DNA from: Apostichopus japonicus
Taxonomy: Eukaryota > Echinodermata > Holothuroidea > Aspidochirotida > Stichopodidae
DNA length: 64,000 nt
Reading direction: 5' to 3'
NCBI RefSeq assembly: GCF_037975245.1
Contig: NC_092565.1
Location: forward strand, 22,401,499 to 22,465,498
Shown: positions 4,169 to 63,900 of the stretch, one piece after another
How the letters are laid out: each line of letters opens with the position of its first letter
How positions within the stretch are numbered: position 1 is the stretch's first letter
The notes under the pieces: generated by a model
What the model saw: only the letters and a program-made list of their open reading frames with translations
Database searches by the model: none
What the model was told of the DNA's origin: nothing
Position numbers and translations under genes: made by a program

Positions 4169-4190
4169 ACATTATCCCTGCTGAATATTT

Positions 4191-7100: not shown

Positions 7101-10029
7101 CCTAACTCCCCCACTTCCTACCCCCTCCCCCACTCCCTTCCCCACTCCCTTCCCCTCCACCCCTCCTCGAGGAGGGGTGGTCCTCTTTGTCCCTCATACA
7201 GTAATGATGATATACACACTGCACCTGCAAGAAGTGAATGACTTGTCAACACTATCAACAGTTTAAGCTGTATTTTTTAATTTCTTTGTAACTGTCTAAA
7301 TAAAACTGTTCAAGATGAATCATGAAATGACTAAAATAACTTCATAGAAGCAGTGGTTTTTACAGCACTTGGTTCTAATGATGAGAACTAGACTGAGGAG
7401 TTGAATTCATCACGATAGTGTCCTTGCAGGAACTTTCCAGACATTTACACATTTTGTACAGGCCAGCATCTAGAGAGCCAAACATATAAAATATGATTGA
7501 TAGTCAAAGGTTTTGATTTTCCGTGACTCGCCTGGCAACTCTAAACTTCTAGGTCAAGTCTTCTTCTCAGAAAAGTAAATTGTTATCTCAGAAAGGGTTT
7601 GTGAGCACTGCATGACCATCTTGAGCCTCAATGGAGACAGATATTTACAGAGTTATCAATGTGGAATTAAAGCAAAGTCTAAAATATATATTACTAGTAA
7701 TGAGCTAGTTGGTTATAAAAAACCCATCACAAGTCAAGGTGAGGTTTTTCCTAGTTATCTCCGCCAACATATATACCAGCGAAGAATGGGTACCTAGCCT
7801 TTACATTTTTATTGTTTTGAGATGGTTAATTTAAGGATGAATAATTTCTTAACCTGTTCTTTATAATGAAGTGCTACAGACTGAGAACTTAAGCAACCTC
7901 CTAAAGGATGCCTTAATGTCTGGGGAATGTATCCCGGGTTACTTAAACTGGCTTGAAGAGCTAAATATCAGAGTAATCAAATAGAGTTATGTTTAGTTAA
8001 ATGACACTATAATCACATTACCCAGTATTTGCGGCAAAAAATGCTCCAGTTTCAGTCCTGATTTTTCTGCTTCGATATCTTATATACATCAGAACTTTCA
8101 TCTAGTAACTTGATCCATTTCTGTTTCAAGAATTATAGCAAGTAATATAAAGCTCTCCAAATGGTGTTCTACAAAATTTCATTATCTTTTCATATTTTTG
8201 TTTGTAGAATGCCTGAACCAAATGCAAATTCCACCCCTATACCCGAGAAGGACCTTCCAAGGTATAAAACTCTCATCTTATCTTATCTCTTTAATTTCCT
8301 TGTAGCGATTTTAACTTTTAAGCTTTTCTTCTCCTTAAAGACTCCTTTTAGTCTATTCCTGTAACTACAAACTTGTGCCAAATATCAAAATGTGTTGTTC
8401 AGGCCTTGATGGTAGAACTTACTCCTTATGTATTCATCAGATGCCAGGAGGATGGATGTGATTCCTTAGTTCGACCTCATGTAGTTTGGTTTGGAGAGTC
8501 GTTAAATGATGAGGTGCTAAGGAAGACCGATGAAGAACTAGAGTCATGTGACTTATGCCTTGTGGTGAGTTCATTGACTAAGTTGTAGACCCCCCCCAAA
8601 AAAAAAAAGGAATGAAAGAGTTCTTTGTCTGAATTGTGTGTTACTTATTTAGCCAAGATCATCTAGATATGGGGACCACAAAACTGTCTTCAGAGAATTT
8701 TGCAGGAAATCATAAAAAGTCTGAACAATTCTGTGCAGTTTCATGATATATAAGAAATCATTGTCACATACTCGTTATAATAAATGCAACACATCTGTAT
8801 AAGTCAAAAACTATGAACAATTATTCCGTTCCTCTTAATTTTGTCTGGTCTGTGGACCATGACATACAAAGTTTGCTTTCTGAGTCACTGACGAAAAAAA
8901 GATTGCAGGCCATAGTTTTAGACCATCCAAGACTTGTCACAAAAGGGAAAATACTTTTCCATAATTTGCATGTCATCTGTCACTTGGCCCCCATAAACTC
9001 TTTTGTGTTTGTTCAGTCAGAAATTGTACTACAAAATGTTAATTTTGGCTTGTCTATACCTGTTATTTAAATTTGGAAATAAATGTTTTCTCTGCACAAA
9101 CGAGTCTGAAGGGAATGATGATATTGATTAAACAATGAAGTTGAAATTAATTAGCTATAAGGAGGAAATCTGTCAGTTTCCTTTTTTGTCTACTTCTTTG
9201 GTGTAGGTGGGTACATCATCAGTTGTGTATCCAGCAGCCATGTTTGCCCCAATGCTGGCTTCCAGGGGAGTAACAGTAGCAGAATTCAACATGGAGGAAA
9301 CCCAAGCTACCTCCTCCCTGAAGTAAGTAGTCTTCTCATGTTTGTCTGATATTAACATCTCTCATCTGTCTTCTTCTTGCCTAGAGGCAAATAAGGCCTC
9401 CACAGAGCGTCTCCATTCATCTCGGTTGGCAGCTTCGTTTCTGGCCTCATACCGAGATTGCCAACCAGCCCTCTCTCTCTCTTTGTCCACTGTCCTGCGC
9501 CATGTTGTTTTTGGTCGCCCTCTCTTTCTCCTGCCCTCTGGTGCCCAAGTCATACTGATGTTGCTGTTGTTGTTTGGGTTTTGGTGCAATATATGCCCAA
9601 TGAATTTCCATCTTCTTTTCTTAATTTTGATGCTTAGTAGTCCCATTTTTGCTCTCTTTATCAGTTCCTTTGTGCTGACCTGTTCTTGCCATCTTATCCC
9701 TAGCACTCTCCTGAGGCATTTGTTATGAAATATATCGCTTTTCTCTTCATTCCCCTTATTCATTTTCCAGGTCTCGCATCCATATAGTAGGACCGGTAGT
9801 ACCAGTGTTTTGTACAGTGATATTAACATAGATCTATTCATCTTGACACTATTCTATAATGCAACAGAAAGTGTTTTATGTTCCCATATAATGAGGCTTT
9901 GCATGACCAAACACCAGGGGAGTAATTGTTCAACTCTTTTCATATCTTTATAGGTATCATTTCCACGGAGCAGCTGGTGAATTTGTCCCACAGGCACTGG
10001 CCAGACATGAATCAGAGCCTGTTGAATGA
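4191..10029 (+). CDS. SIRT5: NAD-dependent protein deacylase sirtuin-5, mitochondrial
   Basis: Class III sirtuin that removes succinyl, malonyl and glutaryl groups from lysines of mitochondrial proteins, using NAD+. Coding exons: 4191-4445, 4784-4891, 5759-5876, 6828-6915, 8208-8261, 8441-8564, 9207-9322, 9954-10029. All junctions are GT-AG and phase-consistent, giving 312 residues (human about 310). Visible: NAD-binding GAGISAESG at residue 60; Tyr104 and Arg107 in YHYRRE, the pair that recognises acidic acyl groups (human Tyr102/Arg105); TQNIDELH at 141; catalytic His160 in LELHG; four zinc cysteines 168, 171, 209, 214; RPHVVWFGE at 219. The N-terminus is basic and Ser/Leu-rich with almost no acidic residues for 30 residues, fitting a mitochondrial targeting peptide. 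The first coding exon starts just after an acceptor (acag at 4168), so the 5'UTR is split by an intron. The last intron holds a LINE insertion; no key residue is missing. Confidence 0.95.
7085..7175. repeat. Pyrimidine-rich C/T tract in SIRT5 intron 4
   Basis: Run of CCCCACTCCCTTCC-like units, almost pure C/T/A on the plus strand, followed by a short palindrome (CCTCGAGG) in which the strand bias switches to purine. Low-complexity DNA; no function is evident. Confidence 0.6.
9359..9817 (-). mobile_element. 5'-truncated LINE (3' end of reverse-transcriptase ORF) in SIRT5 intron 7
   Basis: The minus strand stays open from the insertion edge to a stop about 15 bp from the other edge and encodes the C-terminal end of a non-LTR retrotransposon polyprotein: LLYGCETW, a basic linker, [20 protein letters not shown] and the terminal EEDR. 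The insertion is flanked by a perfect 12-bp direct repeat TGATATTAACAT (9347-9358 and 9818-9829), the signature of target-primed reverse transcription. Truncation falls inside the reverse-transcriptase C-terminal region. An open frame of about 150 codons plus intact TSDs indicate a recent insertion. It cannot move by itself. It sits antisense to SIRT5 between the exons encoding the end of the Rossmann fold and the C-terminus. Confidence 0.9.
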
Positions 10030-14299: not shown

Positions 14300-15190
14300 C
14301 TCCTTTGCTGACCTCAAATGAGCTTTGACCTTCACAAAGAATTACTGGGCTTTTGTAACACATTATAGGAAAGTCATATGCCAATATGACATCTGATGAG
14401 GCTGCCTATCTCATGATGTCATGTTAAAAACTTCCCAGAGTGTAACCTCTGCTGAACCTAAATGTCCTTTACCCTCCACCAAAAACAATAGGGTTCTTGT
14501 AATAGAGGAGCCATAGCCATATATATCAGCTAATGCAGTTTGCTATCCGGAAATATTGTATTTACATAGTGTTCAAGTTTTGACAGCTGGTGACGTTAAA
14601 TGAACTCTGGCCTACATCAAATTGTCTACAAACTATACAATACACAAGGATATCATACCATGCATACATGAACTTCTTTTGTTATATTTCTAGAGACATA
14701 GCAATTTTGGTATGTTAACATTTTGCCCTCTGCTGACCCCAAATGACCTGTGACCTCCACTACAAACAATGGGGTTCGCTGAACTAAATACAGAAAATCC
14801 ACATGCCAAATATAAGAACTTCACAGGCGACCTTCCTTGGGATATCATGTTTACAAGATTTCACACTTTTCCCCCTCTGTTGACCTTTGACATTCATGAA
14901 AAACACTACAGATTGTCTACTCACCCACAACAAGTTACACACCAAGTTCGAACTTGCTGCAACGTCTACTTTCTGAGATACTGTATTGTGTGAACAATGT
15001 TTTCAGACTTTGACCCATGCTGACCTTTGACCAATACCAACAACAATCCCAAACCAGTTCTACATAAGGGGAGCCTACATACCAAATATCAAATGTATCC
15101 CAGTTATCCTTCTGGAGCAAGTGTGACATACACACAAACACACACGCCATTACCACCGCATAGATTTCTTCTGACTTCAGCAGGGAAACA
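14300..15190 (+). repeat. Dispersed repeat with TGACCTTTGACC blocks (inverted mate at 29090-29690)
   Basis: Successive modules of about 140-150 bp, each with a block like TGACCTCAAATGACCTTTGACCT-type text followed by an A-rich CAAT/GGGTTC block (seen near 14310, 14455, 14740, 14885 and 15015). The part 14640-15185 is matched in inverted orientation by 29090-29645, and a weaker relative is at 32465-32720. Open frames across it are chance. It looks like a diverged transposon-derived family with internal tandem structure. Confidence 0.7.
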
Positions 15191-18100
15191 AAACCTGAAT
15201 TGGCTGTGTGTGTATTGTTTTGGCATAGTCTCTTATCAGAGCAACCTTTCATTAAGTTCTTCTCTGCACCTTGATTCCTCTGGATTTGACTTGTGACATT
15301 TGTCATGATAAAGACATGAGATAAAACATGCATAAGAAAAATAAATAAGAAAAAACAGCAAAAAAAAAAAAAAATGATGAAAAATTAAAGAAGTTCAAGT
15401 TGTTATCAGATGGCCTGGCCTACTGCTTAAGTCTACATCCCAATATGAAAATATCTTAAAGCAGTTAGTTACATACTGGTAAATAAAATACAATCAATAT
15501 TTGATTCCAAATTAGGCTGCAGCAGTGTAATATTCCACACCAGCAGAGTGGACCATTTCCTTTTATCACAAACATTGTGCTGGCAATTAGCCTCACCGCT
15601 TTGTGACTGTGACCATTTCAGCTGTGGGTGAAATTAAGCCTTCCAAGTTTCCTTGCATGGTTCACTGGCTAATTACAGTGAAACCAGAGGCTGAAACCAA
15701 AGTAGTTTTCCCCTTATCTATCATTTGTTCTCCTTTTCAATTTACAGCACTACCATACAGCAACAACTATTGCTTTCAGCTACAGATTACGTATCTAAAT
15801 ACTTGCTAGCCCCCGGTAAGGTCCGCTATCAAAATTTTCAGACACTCTCAGGCCTAGCATACAACCTGATATTTATTTGAAAAAGACAGAAATATTTGTG
15901 AGGTATAGACCATTCATTGTAATACTCATGAAACAACAAACAAGGCCACATTTTTGAGCTATAAATGCATTTTACATTACAGCATGGGAGACATCATGTT
16001 GTAAACAAAACTAAGTGCATCAAAGCAACATCTAATTTGTAAATTTCATATGCTAATTTCACTGTTATTTACTGCTTTTTTCCACTGCAATACAAAGCTA
16101 TCCACCCACTGCAATTGATCAATGAAGTTTTCACATCAAAGAATCTAAATATAAATCATTTTTTCCCTCTTGCTATCTAGCACTTTGGTACACAAGTGTC
16201 GTTGTGGGCTTCACATGATTAATACTGTACACATACTACATTATTTGACTAAGTGTTGGTCGAAAATCAACATTCATACAAAACCAAACCACCGATTGTT
16301 TGTGATCATGTCTGGAACAAGACTCAGCGAGAATGTGGACCAAATGAACAATAGGTGTACTAATGATGGCAGACACAGTACATGAAGATGGCATATTCTT
16401 AACCTAGAATTTGGCCAGTGTGGTGAGCACTTTAAGTACTTAAAGTTGACAAACAGAATTAACAAAGTTGTGGGTACTAATGATAGGAGACACATTACAT
16501 GAACATGGCATATATTCTTAACCTCGAATTTGGCCAGTGTGGTGAGCTCTTTAAGTATATGAAATAAACAGATACACAAAGTTGGGGTACTAATGATGAC
16601 AGACATATCACACGATCATGGCATATTTTTTACCTAGAATTTGGCCAGTCTGGTGAGCTCTTTAAGTACTTGATTGATCGAACCACTGTATGTTGTTCAA
16701 GGTTCTAAGTTCTACCGTGATGTACTGTTAGTTACATGGAATACTTTATTGCACAATCCAACATGTCAGCAAAGGGATCATAGAAAAATTAAGTGTTTAC
16801 ATTTAGTGTAGCATTGCTTGTGTCAGGTTTATTTTATTCCTCATAAAAATACTGAAGATGGTACGATTCAGAGTACGAAAAACTGCTCTACGTAATTTGC
16901 ATAAATTTTGTATAGCAATTTGACCGACTATTTTTTGCATAGCATTTCACTATGTGACACCAGATAAATCTTTCCCTGAGATATGTAGTGTTGGACTTCA
17001 CTCATTTGAACATTTACAACTGCCTGACGATGTGCAATAACAGACATCGCCATGGATAACAACGTTCCATTCACAACTGTGATTGGCCAATTGATGGTTC
17101 CACAACAAAGCAAAACCAGAAACTTTACTAAACTACCAGTAACACAAAGCATAAAAAGTACTATATATACCAGAGTAAAGCAAGCTACAAGGTCACACAT
17201 TGAAACTCAGTTAAAAACTTAAAGGTATTGCAATTTGAAACTGAGAAAGCAAACTTGATTCCTTCACTTTATAAAATGGTAAACATGGCTTCAGGTGGGA
17301 AGAGTAATCAGGATTTGATACTTCATTCTGCAATCCCGATGCATAGCTGCCATCTCTCATACATATTCATGTTTCTCTATTCGTCTCCTCCACGCTACTG
17401 TACTGTAGGGCTACCTCTGCCATCACCTAAGAGACACAATGTGCTTTATATGGCCCTGTAAGGAAATGACAAGAAACATTTATGTACTTGTATTTGAAAT
17501 TTTGGTACTAGCTAATTGTATAGGAATTTTTGAAGTGTTCCAATGTGGTGACTCAATGCTGACTTGACACTCCACAAAACAATACCAACACAATCATGAT
17601 TGGGAAAGTTTTTTCAATATGAAACAGAGTAAAGTTGGGAAAAAGACATGGTCTTCAAGGTTGAAGAGAATATTTGCCTTTGCCCTCTCAGACCAAGGAA
17701 ACTTAGTGAAGTCCCATCTCATGGATACAAATCAATCGAATATTCCAAATTCTAGCAAAGTTCCAGTGATTACAGACTGACACAGAGGAATATGAAATTT
17801 TAACTAATAACATGTCAACAATAATATTTCATAATGAACGGGAAAAAAGCACTGCATGAGGGAAGCTTTTGTCAAATTTAACAACTAATTAATCTGTGTT
17901 CCATAAGTTTTTTTGCCCAACTAATGAATAACGAATGGAATTATTGCAATCCCTAAATGAAATTCTACCCAGAACAGCCCCTCAAATATCATCACAAAAT
18001 GTCCCCAAATTTTGGCAAGCTACAGTAATTAACATCACTACATGAATATCTTAGTCTGACAGTGCTTTCCTGCAGGTTCTTATACTCAAACAGATCACAA

Positions 18101-30755: not shown

Positions 30756-33700
30756 CCAGATGGTATGCACAGCATTGTAATTATGTGTGCAAGATGAAGA
30801 GACCTAACTTTGTGTATGTAATGTAATCGTAGATATTATGCAGGATGAAAAATATAAAATAAGTACTAATAAATTACTACTTAAAGATAAATAAGTTTGA
30901 AAAAGAGAAGAAAAAAGAATTAATATAAATTTTATAGTATTCAAATAACTTGACCATTATTTTTTAGTTGATGATGGTAACATCTAGCACTAAGGTGGGC
31001 TGCCTGCGGGCCACATACGGCCCACCAGTGATTTTTTGCGGCCTGTGAGATGTCTCAAGAAAGAGGAAAAAAAATCAATCTATTTTACATCATCATAAAA
31101 AATGAACTAGCTGCTTTGAATTTATTGGCACTAATGATGCTGTCAGGTAGGCCTGTTATCCACATTATTTATCAACTGTACTGACATTATGTTTTTGTGA
31201 ATACAGATTAAGTACACACACGTATTGCTTGAAAGTCCTCGGAATCAAAGGTTTGAAATCAACAGCAGGTCGTTGGTTAGGTGTGGCCCAGTCAATTTTT
31301 CACCCCTTATATCTGGCCCATTCATTCAAAAAGGTTGCCGACCCCTGATCTAGCACATCTTGTAATGTGATAATGTCAAATATAATTAATACCATCTTCC
31401 AGGGTTAATGAAACATAATTTTGAAATTTTAAATGTTTTACCATGAATAATTTATTGTTAACAGTTTGTGTAGAGGTTGGGATGTTGATTCAAACTGGTA
31501 TACATCCTGGCATATTGTTTGACAAATGTGCCGTTTTTACATAGCATTTTGTATGCGATACCAGTTATGTTATACTCTTGCTTTTAAACAGTATTTTTTG
31601 TCTGTATGATGAAGTTGGCTCGGTTACATTGTTGACATTTGTTCTTGTAATCATATAGCTGGCAAAGGACATCAGAAAATTTACTGTTAGAAAAGAGCCA
31701 CTTATGAGGCTAGTGTCCTGGAAATTCTATTTTATAGCAAACTTCTTTGTATGTGAGTGTCAATATAAAACAATTCTAATGTACTGCATTAAGAATACAA
31801 CCACTCAATTGCAGTGAGGGATAATTTTACACATTTCAATCCCATCTTGAAATCCATTATTTGTGGAACGATAACCCAGTGATATTGTTGGCCCAATATT
31901 ATAGTCAGCAAGAGGGCTTGCAGTAGTAAACTTGCCCCCCTCCCCCCCCCCCCCCCCAAACAAAATGCTAGGAAGTGGCCACATATGAGGCTAGTATGGA
32001 AGGAGCGACTTCATCAATGATTTCTGATAATTTGTATTTGAGCAGTCATCAGTATGGTTCTAAGTACTTGAATGAAATGGCATCAAATTAAAGTGCATGA
32101 AGTTGGTAAATTTTAGAAAGGTCAGTCAGTATTTTATTTCATTTGTATCTCTGGAAATGTGTTGAAATATCCAGGCAGGTAATTCAGTCGTTTCATGAGG
32201 TCACAGATTTTGACGTCTAAAGGTATAGGATTTTTTCTACTTGATGATGGATTTCATACGCTACATATCACATTCATTTGTCTTTCTAGAATGTTTTCTT
32301 TCTAGAGTCATTTTCAAGGTTTTATATTTTGTCCCTTTTTTAATCTCCAGTGGCCTTTTATTTTCACAAAAAATACAAAAATTAATAAGCCACTCTTACT
32401 TTTGTAGAAACTTAAACATGTTAAGTATGACATCCATCTAAGTTTTCCTTCCTAAGAAATTTTAGTTTTCTACATTTGCCCTCTGCTGACCTAGAGGCAC
32501 CTTTCACTCCAACCTAACATAATTGGGTTTCTTCTTCTTCTTCTTTATACATTGTATTTATATGCAAAGTATGAAAGCCATTTAAATTGTCATCCTTGCA
32601 TATATCATCATTATCATATTCCAGACATTTTTCACTCTTCAGCTGACCTTAAATCTCTACTGCAAGATAAAGAGGACTGTTCTCCTTGGCCATAGTAATA
32701 GGCTTCTATACACACCATAAGACGATGTTAATAGCATGGTTCCACCCAAGTTGCCCTTCTTGAGGTATCACATTAACAAAACAGGCATTATTAAATACAA
32801 AGGAAGAGCATAGTGATTGTAATCAAAACTAAAACCAATTAAATGGCAGTTATTTAAGGTTATATTTAAGAGCAGCATTATGGAGTATTCTTAGGGCTTT
32901 CAGTCGGTCCTGATCACACCGGAATATGTGTGTCTGCCAATAAAGGTAATGTTATGTAATCATGATGTGTAAATTGAAGTAACACTATCTTTGTAGAGGT
33001 AACTTTTATCAGATCAAATTTAAACTTTAGACCAGTAGTGGTAGAGTTAAAAAACTTGCAACCATTTCTGTGTCGTTAGTACTACGTGTGTGTGACTATG
33101 CTAGTATTTCACCTTGTTGTTTCAGTAACGTGTTCAATTTTAAAATGTATTAAAAATTACCATACAAGTTCTTAGTGACAAAAAACTGCTACTTATGCCA
33201 AACTGGTACAAAGTAAATGGTACAAAAATGTACATTAATTACACTTTTCAGCATCTGTTTTCAACTTAGAATATGCAGTATTCATAACTTTGTGAGAATC
33301 TTCATGACGTTAAAACGGAGCAAGGCAGTGCTCAATGGGCTTCAAAGTAAGCCTTCTTTGTGCTTCACCTCATAGTCGAGAAAAGAATTGTGCTAAACAA
33401 TTTTTCATCAAGATTTTTTCCGGTGGCATTAACCCATTTACAATGTGATTATTTTAATGTTTTGTTCATCTTTCCATTTCAGAAACTCAGAAATCAAACT
33501 GCATTTATCAAATGGTTGCTCGATAAATTCTGGAAGTGTTACTTGTAATGTTATCTTTGATATGATGAGTTGTCTGTGCTAAGTAATATATAACTGTTGG
33601 TTTGTTTATTAAGATTGTGCTGATGTAGGCCCTCTCATTAAAGTTATAGAATTTCAATTTATGCTTGAGTAAATAGTGTTGAAAGGAGAGACAATCTTGA

Positions 33701-35535: not shown

Positions 35536-38500
35536 TCAGTGTTTTAATTGTACCATTTCTTTATGAACCTTCAATTTGGGATTCTTCATCACTTTCTTGT
35601 TAAATTTGATGAAGAGCTTCTCTTCGCTTGTGATGCTAGCATCCTCTCCATGTGCGAAATACTCTGAGAGAACCTGCCAAGAGAAAGAGATGAATCACTA
35701 ATTGGGTTTAAAACATTTCATCTTAAATTATATGATTGGGTGTGAAAAAGTATTGTTTCCTAACACGGAAGAAGAGTATTGTACAATGCACATCTCATTC
35801 CAAGAGTTCAACATTTAATTACTTACAATGTAGTCCAAACAATGTTTCTTGCAATATGCATCAAGATCTAGATTTCAGTTACATGAGTTATGGTATGGGG
35901 GAGGGGAGGGGGAGGGGAGGAATGGTGGGGGAGCGAAGGGAGAGCTGTGACACATAATCTTGGAGGCCATGTCTTTGGAGTTTTGAACCGAAAAATCCCT
36001 TTCACATGTCATGAGGTTTACCATCCTTAAGAGATCCGAAAGTGAACAATTGACACTTAAAAGTACCAAATATTACTTTCATTGTTTTTTCAAGTTTCAC
36101 ACTGTACCTTTTTCTTTAACTTTTTCAATCGGATTTCACCGCCAGCCTGCTGCAAGACTTCAGTGATAACAGCTTCCCATTTGAACTTTCCACCTGTTTG
36201 AATTATTCAAAAAAGAGAAAGATGGTTTGGTTAGGATAAGTACAATATTTTAGAAAAATTCCATAGTATTAAAGACTTAAAAAATGCCTTCATATGCCAC
36301 AGCAACCATCAGTTAAATGAAAACAATGGTTTGATATGAATTTTTGGATGTGAAAATTATTGATTGTTCTGGTTTGACTTATCTGTACATGTGACGAACT
36401 TGACGTTTGTAGTTGAAACCATCACAGCTTATTTCAAGCTGCTTGTACACAAGGAAGGCCAAACAGGAAACACTAAAATGATTGAATTCAAGACATTCTA
36501 ATAAACTCTGGGACAGTCCCCTTGATACTTGGGGAAGATTCTGTGTGTACTTTTAACCTAAGGACTGTACACAAAGTCCAGGTACTGTCCACCAGAAATA
36601 AAGGCATTTGCTCACTCTATTCTCTAAGAAAACTTAACTACCAAACTTGAATAACTCCTGCCTGGCTCAATTAAACATTTGATTTTTTGAGGGGACTCAC
36701 CGCCTCTCCTTGATTGCTCTGTAACATCATCATCAGCTGCATCTTCTTCCTCCTCCTTCTCCTCTGCTGCTTCTTCCACACCACTTTCTTTCTCATCCTT
36801 CTTCCTCTTTTTACTCTTTTTACCTTTCAGACTTTCATCACTGTTCATCTTGTCTTTCCTTTTCCTACTTTTGCAGTCATTTTCTGTTTGATTTCCTTTG
36901 ACTTCTTTAATCTTAAGTGACTCATCCTCATCACCATTAACCTCCCTATCTCTCTTTTTCTTTCCCTTCCTTTTCTTCTTTCCTTCCAATTCCTCTGAGA
37001 TGCCATTTTGTTTAGATTGCTGCTGGAATGCATCGACGTTGTCTTCTACTGTCAGACCGTTTGCAGTCTGCTCGTCCTCTCCATGATTTCCATCATCGTC
37101 ATCTTCTCTATTTTTCTTCTTCTTTTTCTTCTTCTTTCTCGGTTGCTCTTCAAGTCCATCCTCTCCATCTCCATTTACCTCATCTGATGGGTCTCCTTGA
37201 CGCTTCCTCTTCCCGCCACCTTGAGCTCTTTTGTCTCTATGATTAATGTCCTCTACAGTCGTCTTATGTTCTTCGTCCCCTCTCTTGGCCGTGTCTGATT
37301 CCCCGTCATCGACTTTGGCTTCCCCGTTTAGTTCTCCGTTTTTTGTGGCGGATGGCTGAGTTGACTCTGCCCTCTGTTCAGATTCACAGCGTCAAAATTA
37401 AAATGGGACAAAAAAAGAAAAGAAAATTACATGAGGTCAGTGACACCATTAGATGCAACAAACTCTAAACCTCTTGAAGGAAAGATGACTCTATTAAGCA
37501 AAACTAACAAGGAAGACAACATTAATCGAGACAAAACACAGAAAAAGTAAACGCAAATTATTTTCTTACCTGAATTTCGAAAGTGACATCTATATAATAC
37601 CTACATGAATGATTATGGATAAAGGATCATAATGATGATGTAATGTGCTAATTTTTTTAAACCAGGAAAAAAACAAGAACAAGTTGCAAATTTTGCACTG
37701 CTTTAATCTATCTTCAACTGAGTCAATGATAATAATATGGAATGCACAATGCAACATCTATAATCAAATCCTTTCCAAATATTGACAAATTGCCAACAAA
37801 ACCTGCTAAAGGGTTGGAAACAGTCTATTAAACATACAGTAGAGCATATTATCACTTTCATCCACAACATTTTCTCACTTAGATGTTTGTGGCACAGAGG
37901 AAACCCAATGGCAATGTTTTCACAAGCGCTGATTGGAATGAGACTTATAGACAGGGTGTAAATATATCTGTAAGTTACTAACATGTCTGATAATTATGTC
38001 ACTTGAGACATACTACTGTGTCAAGTTTGACTGATAACCTTTTCCTCACCCGAGCTGCTGCAAAAAAGAGTTTTATAGATAGAGTTCAAATATATCTGTA
38101 AGTTACTAAAATGTCTGATAATTATGTTACTTGAGACATACCACTGTGTCAAGTTTGACTGATAACCCTTTCCTCACCTGAGCTGCTGCAAAAAAGAGTT
38201 TTATAGATAGAGTTCAAATATATCTGTAAGTTACTAAAATGTCTGATAATTATGTCACTTGAGACATACTACTGTGTCAAGTTTGACTGATAACCCTTTC
38301 CTCACCTGAGCTGCTGCAAAAAAGAGTTTTATAGATAGAGTTCAAATATATCTGTAAGTTACTAAAATGTCTGATAATTATGTCACTTGAGACATACTAC
38401 TGTGTCAAGTTTGACTGATAACCCTTTCCTCACCTGAGCTGCTGCAAAAAAGAGTTTTATAGATAGAGTTCAAATATATCTGTAAGTTACTAAAATGTCT

Positions 38501-40730
38501 GATAATTATGTCACTTGAGACATACTACTGTGTCAAGTTTGACTAATAACCCTTTCCTCACCTGAGCTGCTGCATACTTCTCGATCGTATCCCAGACTTG
38601 TTCGATCAACCAAGTCTCTCTTACATGCATGCTGTTCCTGACAAAGTTCTGAGAAAAAACAGCAAATCAGAAACAGTAAATATATCACATGCAAAATCAG
38701 TGAAAAGTCCAACTTTTAGTATTCTACTTACATATATGAGACAAGACAGCAGTAACTTGCCAAAATTATGAAAGAAAAATTTCTTACTGAAGCTGTAGGC
38801 ATTGGTTTTAGCAATTTGTTTTAACAGGATTGGGCAATAAAGTTAACAACATTGCAGTTTATCAGCTTTCAAGATTTAGCTAAATGTTGACTTGTTGCAC
38901 TTCATTACAAAAGTGATTCACCATGCACCAACAAATGTGTCTAATATGAAGCTCTTTGGGCTCTTTTCACACTTTGACCTCTACCGACCTTTAACACACA
39001 CAAATATGACTGCATGTTTCTGTACTTGCCTACCTATGACACATAAATGTGGTAAGTAACATGACGTTGAATATAAATTATATAATTAAGATGAACTATT
39101 TGACATTAATTCAAAATTGGCATAGCAGATTAAATTTTCATATTTATAAGATATGACAATAATACTTACAATAGCAATTTTTTAATGATATTATAGCATA
39201 ATTACATAAGAATACTTCGATACTGTATACAAGCAGAAGTTCTTCTATTTTTACTATACTAAAACTATATTACATCTCTTTATGAAGTGCAATTGTCAAA
39301 TATAAGAAATATGAACAAATTTTTACTTTAGTTCACTTGAATTTATTGTAGGGCAAGCTTACCATAAATTTTGCTTTCTTTCTTGGGACATTAGCTTGTC
39401 CACAGTTAATGATGTTCTTCATAGTGTTCCTTACTTTGGGATTCAATGAAGCGTTCATACTGGCTTCACGTACAGTCTGTGGAGGGACAAAATATTTATT
39501 GATACATTTACTGCAAAGTACGTTTGCAGGCATTAACTGACCTTGATCATGAAAATGGCATGCTAAAAAAAAATGGAAGCTAAAGAACAAATTCTAAACA
39601 GAGACATCTATATCCATTTCCAAAGCAGACAAAATACAACACTGACTGATATACCAAATCCAATCATCTATAAAAAAAAAAAATAAAAAATAAAAGTTTT
39701 TTAAAAATATGAAATAAATCCAGAGGCAAATCGTAGAAGAATATTTTTGAAAAGCAGCAGTGTGGTTCTCCTTGAATTTAATGTGGTTTTCATTCAACTT
39801 ATTATTGATGTGTAAATGTTGATTGCTTTAATTTAATGTTTTTTAAATTCTATTCTCAGTAATATCAGAACTGCTGGCTAGGCCTTTGTCTCCTTTCCCA
39901 ATGGCTTGTATATACTAATTATTTAATAATTAATATATAACACTAATTTGTTCTTTGGTGCTCAAATGTAGTTTCTTGCATAGTTCAGTATTATACAGAA
40001 AGTGGGCCTTTTTACTGTACCTCTATCCAACTGTTCTGCTTGACTGCACCCTTGTGTGGTGTAGCTTTGAAGTTTTTGCCTCCATACTTTTGGTCTTCTG
40101 AGATGCAGGAGGTGTGCTCCTTGTATGCATCTCCACTTTGTGGGGGTAAAATAGAAATATACTCTTAAACAATGAAAAGTTATCATAGGCATTTGATATC
40201 AGGCAATAAGTTAGTGCTCATTATTTGTGCAGCAGTTTTGAAGGTGTTAATGAATTTTCGTTTCTTATGAAATACTAAGAATGACCATGTTGTTAATCTG
40301 TCACCAGATAAGGTACTTCATGCCTGGATACTAGTGTATAGTTTACCATGAAAAGAATATTTTAATAGTGCTAAAATACTTTAGTTACAGTATTGTACAT
40401 CCCCATAACAGATAAATCCTACTTGTTCTTGTACCATCAATTAGAAATATATCCATATTATTGCCACCAGTCCGAATATACAGTTCATTTCTAACAATTC
40501 AGTTCTAGCACAGTTAATGAACAAATTAGTTACAATATCAGCTATATTCAAACCCCCAAAAATATGTCTTAGAGAGCAAAAAAAAAAAATAGAAAAAATA
40601 CTTACTGGAAGTCTTTTCCACAGTCAAGACAAGATAGGACCTCACAGGCTCTACATTTGGTAAGATAGTGCTTCTCTACATTAGCTTTCTTTAGAGATTC
40701 ACCACAAGCATTGCATGTGAAAAACACCAT
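35536..40730 (-). CDS. LYAR: LYAR cell growth-regulating nucleolar protein
   Basis: Nucleolar protein of proliferating cells that takes part in pre-rRNA processing and transcription control. Minus-strand coding exons: 40730-40606, 40135-40021, 39476-39363, 38648-38562, 37373-36701, 36193-36108, 35673-35536; every junction is in phase, total 445 residues (human 379). The first 30 residues hold the LYAR-type C2HC zinc finger (MVFFTCNACGES, then HYLTKCRACEVLSCLDCGKDF); the second exon gives the matching CISEDQKYGGK segment; the VPRKKAKF and NSMHVRETWLIEQVW blocks follow. Exon 5 (224 codons) is a disordered Lys/Glu tract with lysine runs usual for nucleolar localisation. The C-terminal 75 residues (FKWEAVI..LKKLKKKV, then FIKFNKKVMKNPKLKV) match the conserved LYAR tail. 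One exon-4 boundary is part of a 128-bp tandem array. The acceptor before exon 2 is an unusual aaag. Confidence 0.95.
37945..38573. repeat. 128-bp minisatellite duplicating the LYAR exon 4 / intron 4 boundary
   Basis: ATGTCTGA recurs at 37983, 38111, 38239, 38367 and 38495, exactly 128 bp apart, with very few mismatches between copies. Each unit contains, on the LYAR (minus) strand, TGCAGCAGCTCAG (the last 13 nt of exon 4) followed by the donor GTGAGG. The true junction is at 38562/38561; decoys lie 128, 256, 384 and 512 bp further into the intron. In each decoy the exon tail is preceded by CTCTTTTTTGCAG, a good acceptor. The outermost decoy has one substitution but keeps GTGAGG. Confidence 0.95.
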
Positions 40731-57900: not shown

Positions 57901-60900
57901 TCATCATCGTCATCTCCAGCATGGTGCTCATGGAAAAGCATTTAATCTCTTTAATAAGATGCAAGAGAAAGGAATTCAAACATCTTTGCATGGATACAAC
58001 GCTCTCATATCAGCTGTGACCAGTATACGAACCGACTACAAAGATAGGTGGGAGGTGCTTGTGGTAAGTCTGTATAAGAGGTTGTAAACAATACGTTGAA
58101 TGAAAGTGCCAAGAATTTCTGAGAGTCTAAAGAAATATAAGTTACATTGCAAGCCAGCTAAGCAATATTTTAAAATACGGCAAGTGGTTTACAATTGCCA
58201 GAGATATTAAATTTACTACACACCAACATATTAGCCACTTTGCGGCATCAAGTGAAAGTGCTATTTTGATTAATTTCCGTTTAAACAAAGTTTGACATAT
58301 GAACAAATGAAAACGACCTGTATCAAGAAAAAGCTCTTCGAGTTTTGAACAAATAAAAGCCAATTCTACTAAAATGAATCATATAAATGACATAAAATGT
58401 TTACCTTGAAACATCTTGCATGGCGCAGTGACCCCCCCCCCCCCCCCAAAACAACAGGTTGACAAGCTTGTAAGATTCATATTTTTTCTCTCTTTCTCTG
58501 GTTTTCTTTAGCAACTCTTGAAGCAAATGCAGGCAGAAAATATCCGTCCAAATGTCCTAACTTTCAACAACCTTTTGAATAGCCTTAGACTGATGGGAGC
58601 CATTGGCCGAAATAAAGCTCTACAGACGTTGAGTGAGATGAGAGTTGTCAATGTCGGTAAGACGACATCCAAGTAATTACTTATAGCTCTACAGACTCTG
58701 AGTGAGATGAGAGTTTTCAATGTCGGTAAGATGACATTCAAGTAATTACTTATAGCTCTCTACAGACTCTGAGTGAGATGAGAGTTGTCAATGTCGGTAA
58801 GACGACATCCAAGTAATTACTTATAGCTCTACAGATGTTGAGTGAGATGAGAGTTGTCAATGTCGGTAAAACGACATCCAAGTAATTACTTATAGCTCTA
58901 CAGATGTTGAGTGAGATGAGAGTTGTCAATGTCGGTAAAACGACATCCAAGTAATTACTTATAGCTCTATAGACGTTGACTGAGATGAGAGTTGTCAATG
59001 TCGGTAAGATGACATCCAAGTAATTACTTATAGCTCTACAGACTCTGAGTGAGATGAGAGTTGTCAATGTCGGTAAGATGACATTCAAGTAATTACTTAT
59101 AGCTCTCTACAGACGTTGAGTGAGATGAGAGTTGTCAATGTCGGTAAGACGACATCCAAGTAATTACTTCTAGCAGCAGTGGAGTATATGTTCTACCGAT
59201 TCTCTTCAGAAGTTGATAGTTTAGTGTGAAAAGGGTTATTTTCAAAATTGTTCACATAGAAGCATTATCAAATAAACTAAAAAACTCATATTGTATTCCA
59301 CAAGTTATCAATAGAGGAAGGAGAAGGTGTTCCTCCTAAATTGGTAGGGTGGGGGAGGGGGATGAGGTTTCTTGGTGCAGGTAATGTTCAGCAGGTTGTA
59401 GATTAGAGGTCATTTCTAAAAATCGTTCAGTTAAGAAGTATGCCTTAGAAATGCTCATTGTGGCAAATAACATGTTTCAAATTATTATTTGATTGGATTA
59501 TATTTTTATCTTCAGCTCCTTCTCTCGGAACATACAGTCTCCTTCTCACAGTTTTCTACAAAGACCGTAAGTATTTTTAAATATACATTTGCTTGGTGTT
59601 TTGAACCATGTTTAAGTGGGTTTTTTGGGGGGGGGGAGGGGGGGTTGGCATGGTTCAGTGTTTTTATTTGAATTAAACTGACAAGGTAATTCAGTTAAAG
59701 GTTCTGTCTAATGGATGTTTACACATCACAGTATCTGATGACCACATCCTTTAAAGGGGCGGGGGGGGGGGGGGGGGAGACCGTCCATTCAACATTGCGG
59801 CAGTGCATCCAAGGTGAACATAGTTGTTTCGAAAACCATTGAAAAGAACAAAACCAAACACCATATCATTATTCACACACCAAAAAAAGTTCAATTTATG
59901 GCAGGATCTGCTCCTTACCATTGCACAGCAGGATTCTTGAATACGACAAGAGAGTTCTGCTCCCTAGTAGGATTGTGACCCGGGAACTGGGTGATTATGG
60001 AGGGAGGGGGATGTTATGTTACTACTACATCACTTCTCCTTAGTGAAATACAGATACCTGCTTCAATAGACCTTTCCTTTTCTTTTTTTACAGATTTGCC
60101 TCCCAACGATATAATCTATGACATCGTAGATACCATAGAGGGAGAGGAATTTACTTACCAAGATCCAAATGACAGTAAGCCTCTGAATGTTTAAATTGTA
60201 AAACTTCCTCCCAAGTGCTTAAGTTAAGAACAAAATGCATATAGTTATAGTTTTATTTTGCATCAGTGGTTACAACAGGTGCTCCCACCTTGAAGTAAGT
60301 CCATGGTGTTACATTAATGTTTACACTTTGAAGTAAGTCCACGGTGTTACCAAAATGCTTACACCTTGAAGTAAGTCCATGGTGTTAGCTAAATGCTAAC
60401 ACCTTGAAGTAAGTCAAAGGTGTTACCATATACATCCTATTTACACCTCATTGCTTCCATTTGCGTGGTTTGGTGCTGTGGAGGTAGAGGGAGGGGCGAG
60501 AAATTTTCTCCTTCACATTGTATTGTAGGCCCTAGCCAATGATCAGTGTAGGGGTGTGATTCAGATACTCAGAACCCACATTAGAGTTTTCTCTTTGGTA
60601 ATGTTTCATAACTCCTTTGACAGTTTAATACTATTTAAATACAAAGTAACAACAATCACTGCAAAGAAGATAAGGTGTTTCTTATTCAAATTAACTTGGC
60701 ATACAAATCCCCGTGTAGTCGTCATGACTACATTAAAGGAGTGTTCTAATACATTTAATACTTTATATCACAACTTAGATATTTCACATTTTAACAGTAT
60801 TTGTAAGGAACATTCCATTGCAGTAATTAATTGAGTGAATCTGCAAGTAATTAGAATGTGAATGGTTTAATAATGAGCAGAATCTAATTTTTTTTCATGT

Positions 60901-63900
60901 TTCTTTTCCTTGCAGTGAACTTTTTCAAGAATGCTATGAATATTGTAAGTACAGTAGAAATACTGTAGTGACCTCCTTTATGTAATACAAGACTTCCACT
61001 GTGTATATGTTACAGACATTTAATTGGTATTCTCAACCACACCTATGATTGTATTAGTAGTTTGCATACAGCCTATTATAATGAATGTTAAACAACAGTT
61101 GGCAGCATAAGAAAAGCCTTTTAAACTCATGCAAATTCCAGCTAAAAAAGAGGTAAGCCAATATTGCCACCTCCCTTCCCCCCTCCTCTCACTCTGTTTC
61201 GTTGTCGTTGCAGATAGCCAAACAAGACATGGTTAAAATAAGTGCATTCATTTGGTGTACTCATTTTTAAGTTTTCATTCAACAAAGTTTATACTTTGTA
61301 AGAACTAACTGTTCAAGATGATGAAAAGTTTCTACACCCAGTTGGGACAAGTTTTTCTGTACTGTATTGTTATGTCCCGCTTTAGAGCACTCGTATTGTC
61401 AGTGCGAGCAGTATGAATATCATGTTTCTATCAGATCAAGGTTAGGAACTGTTTGTACTGTCAATACCAGTGCTTTGAGAGCATAAAATTGGAGTACAGT
61501 TTAGAGAGGTATTAGCATTAGGAAAATTGTCCCAACTGGCTGAGTTTCTACGTGATCCATCTGAATATTCATGATAAGGTATTGAATATTCATTACTATG
61601 GTAAGATATTGAATATTCATTATTTTGGTAAGATATTGAATATTCATTATTATGGTAAGAAATTGAATATTCATGATTATGGTAAGATATTGAATATTCA
61701 TGATTATGGTAAGATATTGAATATTCATTGCTATGATAAGATATCAAATATTCATTTATTATGGTAAGATATTGAATATTCATTATTATGGTAAGAAATT
61801 GAATATTCATGATTATGGTAAGATATTGAATATTCATGATTATGGTAAGATATTGAATATTCATTGCTATGATAAGATATCAAATATTCATTATTATGGT
61901 AAGATATTGAATATTCATTTGACAAAATTTGACTGCTTTGACCTTCCATTCCACCTCTTCCTGTATTGCAGTGCTTTAATTTGAAAGATGTCCGTCTTGC
62001 TTACCGCATAGATGCCCTGCTCAACACAGGCAGCAACTACAAACTTTGTGGTGACACCAGCAAGCAGAGTTTATACTAGTGAGTCCCTCTCTGCTTAGAA
62101 AGTAAACTTTGTCATAAAGAGGGGAATTGACAAGTATAAGGAAAACATCTGCTTATGAATACAAAAAAAAACAGAGCGAAACATTGGTACATTAGATTTG
62201 ACGTTCTGTTTCCCGTTGTTCAAATAAGTATAAGTTAGAATTAAGAGATATTTCCATGAGTACTTAAGCTTACTTCTGGTTATTTCCGCACCCCCCTGCC
62301 CATCCCCCCCCCCTGCATTGTAGTCTGGCTTCACCGATCCCAGGGCCACTCCCCTTTTTTATAAAATCCATGATTCTCTGGTCCTTCCATAAAGGTTCAG
62401 GGTCTGAAATAAATCAGTGGGTCGAAATTTTGAATTTACATCCCCCCCAAACCCACTCGGAACCATCGAAATCCTGGGAATCAATCCTTCATGGTAACAG
62501 AAGAGAGACCTCAGTTGGATGAGGATCTGTATGGCAGAAATGTAGGAGAAAATCTCACTAAATATGTTTGTTTGTTTTCTCTTTTTTTGGTTTCTGGTAT
62601 TTAGTTCCCGGTTCTTACATTTAATTTGTCTAATGGACAGTGCAGAAGCCATGTATGAGTACTATGAGAAGTTAGTGCCCTCGGTAAGTTTCTTTTTTTT
62701 TTCGTCAGTGCCTTTCATAAAAATGTCATCTAGTTTTCATCTAAAAATTGGAATTTGCATTACTGTGAAATGCTTTTCAAAGTACTTATTGAAGTTTGAT
62801 TAAGTTTTCGCTTTATAGTTTGTTACTGGTAGGAGGAAGGATGTGATGAAGAAGATACATGTGCCATTTGTAAAGACAGCCAGGATGTTTTAGTTTATGC
62901 TCCCTTCAATTTGGAGTTACCCCCTCAAGATTTAGTCATTTTCACATGTTCATGTGATACCATATAGTGATAATATTGTCATTTCGAAATTATTATTTCC
63001 TATTATCTTATTTTCCACCCAGCTGGGAAATATTATTATTTCCCAGGAAATGTCCAGTCCTGGTTAAAGAATCAAAATTTATTTTTATAGTGCTTTCATT
63101 ACACCTGTACATTGATTATTCAAAGCAAAACAAAATACTGTGTCACAATTTTCACAAAAACCTTCAATTTCGTTAGAAATAGCAGAAGTTTCAGCCATTT
63201 AGTTGTTGTATCTTGGTTTAGGGAGGGGAAGGGTAGGGGATGGGGAGGGGAATGGGGAGGGAAGGCGTGGGGGCAGTTGGGGAAGTATCAAAAGTTGATG
63301 TCCCTGTTTATTGAATCATCCACTTGTAAATTATATTTTGTTTCTGTCTTATAGGGTTTCATACCCAATGGTTTGGTATACATGGATATGATGAGATCTA
63401 TACAAACAGCGGGAAGTTTTGAAAAGCTTCCTCTTATCTGGAAAGGTGAGTCAATTAATGAAAAGGGAATTAGAAAGGAAACCTAAACTTATATAATTAA
63501 CACTCTGAATTCTTTTTTGCCTTTTAAAAGAGTGTCCAAAATAAGGAAACAATGTTGGCGTAATTTGTCATTGGCTTCCTCACCTGGCCCCTCGTCCAAA
63601 GAAAACTTTTCTGCTCGCACTACAAACGTGGATATAGAATGATTAAAGTTTATAGCATGTGTAATTATATATTATCAATCCATTGTAGTGAAATATGTGT
63701 AATAGAAATTGACAGAAGATAAATACCCAAGACACTTATTATGGCACTTTTGGAAATAGTTCAAATGAAGACTATTTTATTTTGGATTTAATCTTTTGCA
63801 ACAAAGAAAGTTGGAGTGTTAATCATTGTTACAGAAATGAATAATTTTGTATCTTTTTCTGTCTAACAGATATGTGCATTTATGGACTGAGGTACAGACA

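What the first reader, a model, noticed from the sequence alone, without database searches (positions are those of the whole stretch)
37945..38573. LYAR intron 4: five tandem copies of an exon tail with its splice donor, each decoy with its own acceptor
Seen directly: exact 128-bp period; each unit has, on the gene's strand, CTCTTTTTTGCAG then CAGCTCAG then GTGAGG. The last 13 nt of exon 4 plus its donor are copied four times into the intron. Each decoy therefore looks either like an 8-nt microexon (frame-shifting if included) or like a recursive splice site, CAG next to GTGAGG after a pyrimidine tract. Inference: the array could drive stepwise removal of the intron, titrate U1, or create transcript variants whose number tracks copy number.
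Basis: partly seen in the sequence, partly recalled or inferred. Interest (0 to 1): 0.8.

Follow-up and report, generated by a model that had tools for sequence, protein, structure and literature searches.

The report
Tandem repeat copying a splice donor
In what is probably a sea cucumber gene, a short DNA repeat has copied the end of an exon and its splice signal four more times into the next intron, and the same thing has happened at several unrelated genes of this genome, giving natural test cases of how cells pick the right splice site among near-identical ones.

Summary
The array is real. 128-bp units without indels span the end of LYAR coding exon 4: unit 0 holds the exon's last 13 nt and its donor; four intronic copies follow. 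Two corrections: the CTCTTTTTTGCAG tract occurs only in the four copies, and the fourth copy reads CTCGG|GTGAGG. The genome is very probably the sea cucumber Apostichopus japonicus.

Best reading: a minisatellite that captured a 5' splice site; splicing mostly uses the first donor and discards the rest. Copies 1-3 also carry CAG|GT behind a pyrimidine tract, so traceless 128-nt recursive steps are possible but unproven. Including one, two or four 'microexons' gives an early stop; three keep the frame.

Main addition: this is recurrent. Pattern searches led to the same architecture at a C-type lectin family (three loci), a dynein heavy chain, MON1, KRI1, a VPS39-like gene and five exon-like ORFs. 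Some score poorly as acceptors, so recursion is not a general reason for tolerance. Closest known: dual-specific splice-site arrays (UBC) and tandem-duplication intron gain. No RNA data were available; function is untested.

The parts
38562..38648 (-). LYAR coding exon 4 (87 nt, phase 0-0); its last 13 nt and its donor form the start of unit 0 of the array
   Evidence: gene model and translation; zf-LYAR in the full protein
38447..38574 (-). array unit 0: exon tail TGCAGCAGCTCAG plus real donor GTGAGG and the intron start; has one private base (at 38545) against units 1-3
38319..38446 (-). array unit 1; microexon-like CAGCTCAG at 38441-38434, preceded by CTCTTTTTTGCAG, followed by GTGAGG
   Evidence: scores
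38191..38318 (-). array unit 2 (identical to unit 1); CAGCTCAG at 38313-38306
38063..38190 (-). array unit 3 (2 differences); CAGCTCAG at 38185-38178
37945..38062 (-). array unit 4, truncated and diverged at its end; CAGCTCGG at 38057-38050, zero-position AG lost
   Evidence: acceptor score at the zero position -1.1 against 8.2 in units 1-3
37374..38561 (-). LYAR intron 4 (1188 nt; 676 nt if four 128-nt units are removed)
36701..37373 (-). LYAR coding exon 5, whose acceptor scores poorly (-1.0) against acceptor-like sites in copies 1-3 (5.3 and 8.2)
35536..40730 (-). LYAR coding region, 7 coding exons, 1338 nt with the stop, 445 aa

Best explanation
A minisatellite (128 bp x ~5) arose by tandem duplication across the exon 4/intron 4 boundary of LYAR and so copied the exon tail and 5' splice site into the intron. 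Shown: the array, its unit structure and that the search finds it at a single locus. Inferred: the spliceosome mostly pairs exon 4's own acceptor with the first donor, which is transcribed first and closes an 87-nt exon, so the copies leave with the intron and the array is close to neutral. Inferred and optional: copies 1-3 may act as dual-specific AG|GT sites, and removing exactly 128 nt that way regenerates the same exon end and leaves no trace in the mRNA. Most other uses of the copies (one, two or four microexons, or a later donor) put a stop codon at residue 163-174 (computed) and would be expected to be destroyed by nonsense-mediated decay (inferred). The same architecture at several other genes suggests a recurrent outcome of minisatellite formation in this genome, not a LYAR device.
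For: Array and units; single locus. Junction-spanning arrays elsewhere: C-type lectin genes at three loci with about 5, about 10 and at least 9 units, a dynein heavy chain with 27 donors in the stretch fetched, MON1 (only ~7-10 nt of exon tail shared), KRI1, a VPS39-like gene, plus five exon-like ORFs. Unit lengths are not clearly frame-selected: 5 of 11 genes have a unit that is a multiple of 3 (75, 54, 117, 102, 87; the others 128, 47, 32, 56-58, 56, 67). Copy number differs between lectin paralogues. Acceptor scores at the AG|GT vary from good to very low across arrays, so the copied exon tail and donor are what all share. Within the LYAR array one of the few changes destroys the zero-position AG of copy 4: no sign of constraint.
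Against: No RNA evidence that the first donor is the one used. From recalled classical work on duplicated 5' splice sites, identical competing donors often favour the intron-proximal copy, and in DOK7 the stronger intron-proximal donor is preferred (PMC5585400, passages); that would predict the opposite choice. LYAR copies 1-3 have better acceptor-like scores (5.3 and 8.2) than the true exon 5 acceptor (-1.0), so they might be used. The matrix is recalled and not calibrated for this species. The searches favour arrays that hold real donors, so they show recurrence, not excess, and reversed control motifs also form many ladders.
Confidence: 0.62

Rival explanations
1. Traceless recursive splicing: exon 4's donor splices to the AG|GT of copy 1, regenerating the same donor, then on to copies 2 and 3, and finally to exon 5. 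The array is a ladder of dual-specific splice sites removed in exact 128-nt steps.
For: Copies 1-3 have TCTTTTTTGCAGCAGCTCAG|GTGAGG; the acceptor score at that AG is 8.2, within the best 67 of 3782 AG sites on the strand. A yUnAy match CTTAC has its A 41 nt before the GCAG. Human UBC is spliced through a tandem AG|GT array (PMC10809524, Results and Discussion read). In G000 the strict acceptor-donor-acceptor pattern at this spacing matches 10 times against 1 for the reversed control; 3 of the 10 are LYAR and 4 are lectin arrays.
Against: Two nearer AGs (GCAG, CAG) lie upstream and would normally be taken first, giving 8- or 5-nt insertions. Copy 4 lacks the AG. Fly recursive splicing appears restricted to very long introns (PMC6110457, passages), whereas this intron is 1188 nt; that study's junction search was limited to segments of at least 1 kb, so it does not speak to 128-nt steps. 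Several other junction-spanning arrays have very low acceptor scores, and the third lectin locus has CACGG, not CACAG, in its consensus unit.
Confidence: 0.17
2. Microexon variants: the 8-nt (or 5-nt) copies are included in a share of transcripts. Three included copies add five to eight residues in frame; one, two or four give early stops and lower LYAR output.
For: Each copy has a pyrimidine tract, CAG and a strong donor 8 nt on; the coding outcomes are computed.
Against: 8-nt exons are very small for exon definition (established knowledge). Three of the four inclusion counts destroy the frame, with a stop about 700 nt before the last junction. No transcript evidence.
Confidence: 0.08
3. Decoy-exon control of intron retention: splicing factors assemble on the copies, stall removal of intron 4 and tune LYAR mRNA.
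For: Decoy exons are reported to promote intron retention, with at least partial spliceosome assembly suggested (PMC12017769, passages). Four strong donor copies lie directly behind the real donor.
Against: Reported decoys are tied to longer retained introns, and the OGT decoy is 143-153 nt, not 8 nt (same passages). Recurrence in unrelated genes with variable copy number fits mutation better than regulation.
Confidence: 0.05
4. The last or any later donor is used, so exon 4 is extended by one or more units.
For: Duplicated identical donors often favour the intron-proximal copy (recalled; related passages in PMC5585400).
Against: Every extension of LYAR by one to four units meets a stop at residue 163, and the intact protein model needs the first donor.
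Confidence: 0.04
5. Assembly artefact (false duplication or collapse).
For: Short near-identical repeats can be mis-assembled; reads could not be examined here.
Against: Units differ at known positions. The 630-bp array is short against long accurate reads; the matching published assembly used HiFi reads (PMC10344927, passages), if G000 is that assembly.
Confidence: 0.02

Closest known systems
Dual-specific splice site (DSS) arrays in tandem repeats: human UBC, VCX3A (Duan et al. 2024, PMC10809524)
   Same: Tandem units each carrying AG|GT that could serve as 5' or 3' splice site, at exact unit spacing, so that removing whole units regenerates the site; the authors link DSS to repeat expansion.
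   Different: In UBC the units are coding and usage is shown by RT-PCR. Here the copies lie in the intron behind a real donor, the unit is not a multiple of 3, copy 4 lacks the AG, and no use is shown.
[quoted passage not shown] potato RdRp case, PMC4974935)
   Same: A tandem duplication across an intron/exon boundary copies splice signals.
   Different: The potato case duplicated the 3' side of an intron with the start of the next exon once and created a new intron supported by RNA reads. Here a 5' splice site is copied four times and, on sequence, no new intron is needed.
Recursive splice sites / ratchet points (PMC6110457, passages; PMC8605326, listing only)
   Same: Juxtaposed pyrimidine-AG|GT motif within an intron in copies 1-3.
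   Different: Known fly sites lie in very long introns and are conserved; here steps would be 128 nt in a 1188-nt intron, with nearer competing AGs and unknown conservation.
Decoy exons in retained introns (OGT, ARGLU1, SF3B1; PMC12017769, passages)
   Same: Rarely used acceptor-donor pairs inside an intron.
   Different: The OGT decoy is far larger and its retention is measured; here the repeat origin explains the pairs and no retention is known.
Intronic minisatellites / VNTRs (ABCA7, PMC5954066, start of abstract in the listing only; earthworm metallothionein, PMC12783039, passages)
   Same: Intronic tandem repeat inside a gene, probably variable in copy number; the ABCA7 one is reported to affect splicing.
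   Different: Here the unit itself contains the exon tail and the functional donor; the text that I saw on the other two does not say so.

Membership tests
LYAR gene | LYAR-type C2HC zinc finger in an intact reading frame | tested here: met
   zf-LYAR 9.4e-15 at residues 32-59; 445-aa ORF over 7 coding exons
Minisatellite array | head-to-tail units above ~10 bp at high identity | tested here: met
   period 128, 4.9 copies, 97%
Minisatellite array | copy number varies between individuals (VNTR) | not testable with these tools
   one assembly only; lectin paralogues differ (about 5, about 10, at least 9 units)
Dual-specific splice-site array | AG|GT at every unit, spacing equal to unit length | tested here: inconclusive
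   met by the exon copy and copies 1-3; copy 4 reads CGG|GT and fails
Dual-specific splice-site array | the same site shown to be used as donor and as acceptor in RNA | not testable with these tools
   no transcriptome available
Recursive splice site (ratchet point) | juxtaposed 3' and 5' splice motifs around AG|GT | tested here: met
   copies 1-3: acceptor score 8.2 and donor score 12.3 at the same point
Recursive splice site (ratchet point) | very long intron | tested here: not met
   intron 1188 nt, step 128 nt
Recursive splice site (ratchet point) | recursive junction reads or lariats | not testable with these tools
   no RNA data
Intron gained by tandem duplication | a new intron, absent from relatives, spliced out of mRNA | not testable with these tools
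   no relatives or RNA held; a search for spliced cDNA copies found only the gene's own three exons
Decoy exon | partial inclusion or spliceosome assembly linked to intron retention | not testable with these tools
   no RNA data

The most novel reading that the evidence does not exclude
5' splice-site minisatellites are a widespread, copy-number-variable class in this genome. Exon tail plus donor is multiplied up to tens of times, also in conserved genes such as KRI1, MON1 and dynein. Splicing resolves the ladder by a first-donor rule or, where the unit also carries an acceptor as in LYAR, by traceless unit-by-unit recursion, so that the intron can expand and contract without cost and copy number could tune mRNA output.
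Probability: 0.18. Interest if true: 0.8.

Novelty: new variant of a known kind. Interest (0 to 1): 0.5.

Why it matters
How the spliceosome chooses among identical neighbouring 5' splice sites has been studied mainly with artificial duplications (recalled). Here are natural ladders of 5 to 27 or more near-identical donors, each with a copy of the true exon tail, in genes such as LYAR, KRI1, MON1, a VPS39-like gene and a dynein. Existing RNA-seq could read out directly which copy is used, whether whole units are removed without trace, and whether copy number matters. It would also show how intronic minisatellites can capture functional splice signals, a step towards intron gain or dual-specific splice sites.

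Tried and rejected
Retrocopy as natural cDNA: joined exons 3-5 searched in G000; only the gene's own exons matched. The 128-nt unit elsewhere in the genome: none found. Rfam on the window: no match at gathering thresholds. Constraint on the copies' splice motifs: too few differences; one of them kills an AG. Divergence break in the last unit: Fisher test on 3/104 against 9/24 gave p = 1e-5. The boundary was chosen after seeing the data and is off by about one base; read it only as a hint that the 3' edge is older than the interior.

Control for the donor ladders: acceptor ladders TTTTNCAG give 402 matches, 296 for the reversed control. The part of the list shown has 12 distinct arrays; I fetched 11 (one near-identical second copy left out), and by eye 0 of 11 are followed by an exon-like frame at the last acceptor. 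Weak control: that motif is shorter and more degenerate than CAGGTAAGT, and the list was cut.

U1 titration: rejected as implausible, not tested. Structure prediction and the prokaryote, phage and plasmid collections: not used, no bearing.

Limits of the class count: the searches demanded strong donors, so arrays that hold a real donor are favoured, and the reversed control motifs also form ladders (314 for 630, 50 for 114, 34 for 95). I cannot say whether junction-spanning arrays are over-represented. Exon calls for L020, L022, L037, L040 and L042 rest on an acceptor plus open frame, judged by eye. L020 had no match in Pfam or PDB; L022, L037 and L042 had none in Pfam and were not sent to PDB; L040 had none in Pfam and only BCR at E = 0.1 in PDB. 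The MON1 Pfam match (9e-4) is below the curated cut-off; the PDB match to MON1A (4.6e-7) is clear. 'Not junction-spanning' for the other arrays means that no exon-like frame was seen at the array start. L024 is unresolved; L039 has a tubulin-ligase-like exon (recalled) close upstream but not in the unit; L010 has an exon-like frame about 100 nt upstream.

My session note says 12 of 13 read-throughs stop before the second donor. Re-reading it is 11 of 13: the VPS39-like locus stops just after its second donor, and L042 shows no stop in the 30 codons shown.
Full report
Observation. Tandem Repeats Finder places one array at 37945-38574 with period 128, 4.9 copies, 97% matches and no indels. Reading the gene strand in register, unit 0 starts 13 nt before the end of an exon and contains its donor; units 1 and 2 are identical; unit 3 differs at 2 positions; unit 4 differs at 12, nine of them in its last ~25 nt. 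The motif CAGCTC[A/G]G|GTGAGG occurs five times at exact 128-nt spacing. The search finds the array once in the genome.

Gene. A model of seven coding exons (40730-40606, 40135-40021, 39476-39363, 38648-38562, 37373-36701, 36193-36108, 35673-35536) gives an uninterrupted 445-aa protein with a zf-LYAR domain, 9.4e-15. The array spans the end of coding exon 4 (phase 0) and roughly the first half of intron 4 (1188 nt).

Organism. G000 has 671,581,487 bases in 35 contigs. Its contig C35 (16,099 bp) carries COX1 followed by an ORF that looks like ND4L (recalled). Reading COX1 with code 5 puts Lys and Met at positions where Asn and Ile are expected, as in the echinoderm code (the conserved positions are recalled). 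A published Apostichopus japonicus assembly is 671.60 Mb in 34 scaffolds from HiFi and Hi-C data (PMC10344927, passages). Identity with that assembly is very likely but not proven: the totals differ by about 0.06 Mb.

Splice-site strength. With a weight matrix from recalled human-like frequencies, the real donor and copies 1-3 score 12.3, and only 5 of 3610 GT sites on the strand reach that; copy 4 scores 10.7. Acceptor-like scores in copies 1-3 are 5.3 at GCAG|CAGCTCAG, 3.2 at the next CAG and 8.2 at the AG|GT itself; the true acceptor of exon 5 scores -1.0. U1 duplex energies are -11.6 (real donor and copies 1-3) and -10.9 (copy 4), against -7.5 to -9.4 at the other LYAR donors. A CTTAC branch-like site has its A 41 nt before each next unit's GCAG (unit 1 examined).

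Consequences of use, computed. Inclusion of one, two or four microexons of 8 or 5 nt gives stops at residues 163-174, about 700 nt before the last exon junction; three restore the frame, adding 5 to 8 residues. Extension of exon 4 to any later donor meets a stop at residue 163. Splicing to the AG|GT of copies 1-3 removes whole units and leaves no trace in mRNA. The search found no retrocopy that would show the spliced form.

Is it unique? No. Pattern searches of G000 for ladders of strong donors were followed by fetching array starts. CAGGTRAG three times at 113-143 nt spacing gives 630 matches, 314 for the reversed control. Of 10 distinct arrays in the part of the list shown I fetched 7, and 2 of 7 are junction-spanning: MON1 (Fuz_longin_1 9e-4, below its cut-off; PDB MON1A 4.6e-7; only ~7-10 nt of exon tail shared) and a dynein heavy chain (AAA_6 1.4e-9), the latter with 27 donors, some altered, in the stretch fetched. 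CAGGTAAGT three times at 54-84 nt gives 114 matches, control 50. All 8 distinct arrays in the part shown were fetched and 5 of 8 are junction-spanning: KRI1 (Kri1_C 7.5e-29), a VPS39-like gene (the exon itself had no match, but Vps39_1 matches just downstream at C8:23174903), the exon-like ORFs L020 and L022, and a C-type lectin exon, L021. CAGGTAAGT three times at 85-115 nt gives 95 matches, control 34, listed without a cut notice: 11 distinct arrays, 6 of 11 junction-spanning (KRI1, VPS39-like and L020 again, plus the exon-like ORFs L037, L040 and L042). Over these three searches 22 distinct arrays were inspected and 10 of 22 are junction-spanning. A stricter acceptor-donor-acceptor pattern at N{90,120} gives 10 matches, control 1: 3 are LYAR and 4 belong to two C-type lectin loci on C23. 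Two neighbouring spacings gave 3 matches with control 0, and 0 with control 1; those and the three remaining single hits were not followed. The lectin exon is a candidate signal peptide ending in phase 1; downstream Lectin_C exons (4.2e-12 to 2.2e-11) begin with the matching phase in the two examined. The class thus counts 11 genes or gene families, LYAR included (13 loci): six supported by a domain match, five by open frame only.

What the class shows. The shared element is exon tail plus donor. The acceptor score at the AG|GT is good in LYAR copies 1-3 (8.2) and fair in most lectin, dynein and VPS39-like copies (about 5 to 10), but low in KRI1 (-3.1), L022 (-5.2) and L020 (0 to 2). Dynein and MON1 units are 47 and 32 nt, too short to be introns by themselves (established knowledge). 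Recursion therefore cannot be what generally makes these arrays tolerable; use of the first donor can. Units are multiples of 3 in 5 of 11 genes, and in 11 of 13 loci read-through past the first donor meets a stop before the second donor. These points fit mutation tolerated inside introns, with most off-target splicing removed by quality control (inference). The searches favour arrays that hold a real strong donor, so they show recurrence, not excess. An acceptor-ladder control found 0 of 11 fetched arrays at an exon start but is weak because its motif is degenerate.

Mechanism and rivals. The best reading is a 5' splice-site minisatellite, near neutral, first donor used (0.62). Traceless recursion through copies 1-3 is the strongest rival (0.17): the motif is good, but two nearer AGs compete, copy 4 is broken, and fly recursive introns are far longer (PMC6110457, passages; its search for AGGT-to-AGGT junctions was limited to segments of at least 1 kb). 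Microexon variants, decoy-type retention and later-donor use are less likely; assembly artefact is unlikely because the units differ at fixed positions.

Relation to known systems. UBC and VCX3A show or suggest that tandem AG|GT units can be spliced as dual-specific sites, and 77 of 792 human introns lying within tandem repeats have a length that is a multiple of the unit (PMC10809524: abstract, Results, Discussion and one Methods section read). A potato gene gained an intron through a tandem duplication across an intron/exon boundary (PMC4974935: abstract, Results and Discussion read). The LYAR case works like a possible dual-specific ladder but is not shown to be one. My ten paper searches (two returned nothing, and one search was on the organism) covered tandem repeats, minisatellites, recursive splicing, decoy exons and competing donors. 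Their listings did not show a paper on exon-tail-plus-donor minisatellites as a recurrent class; I read only the papers named here. The library lacks most subscription papers, so this is not proof of novelty.

Noticed in passing
L006, L007 (G000:C23:16980501-16984500, 16992501-16997500) and L021 (C17:27358801-27361300): Three C-type lectin loci with a 75-bp array (about 5, about 10 and at least 9 units, the last running to the end of the stretch) copying a candidate signal-peptide exon tail and its donor. On C23, 10 of 13 intronic copies have CACAG where the exon copies have CACGG or CACGT; the C17 consensus keeps CACGG. The C23 loci were found by a search that demanded an acceptor.
   Followed up: partly
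L016 (G000:C4:19866501-19869500), 1738-3000: Dynein heavy chain exon followed by 47-bp units that copy its last ~22 nt and donor; 27 donors seen and the array runs off the fetched stretch.
   Followed up: partly
L017 (G000:C2:28047001-28049200) and matches up to C2:28050349: KRI1 exon tail and donor in a 54-bp array of roughly 26 copies.
   Followed up: partly
L042 (G000:C22:21524501-21527500): Junction-spanning 87-bp array whose unit is open in the exon's frame (29 codons): use of later donors would give a protein repeat of variable length.
   Followed up: no
L019 (G000:C8:23171801-23174300): VPS39-like gene: the real donor is CAGGTAGGT while most intronic copies are the higher-scoring CAGGTAAGT.
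   Followed up: no
window 58616-59174, 61566-61919, 16357-16670: Other tandem arrays in the window (69 bp x 8, 27 bp x 13, 119 bp x 2.7); the first two consensus units contain GGTAAG.
   Followed up: no
G000:C29 (31,219 bp): Contig with COX1 fragments at 14745-16086 and again at 30842-31219: looks like a duplicated or nuclear mitochondrial copy.
   Followed up: no
window 4185-4466 (+) and 9365-9853 (-): ORFs that look like a sirtuin exon and the C-terminal part of a reverse transcriptase (recalled resemblance, no search run).
   Followed up: no
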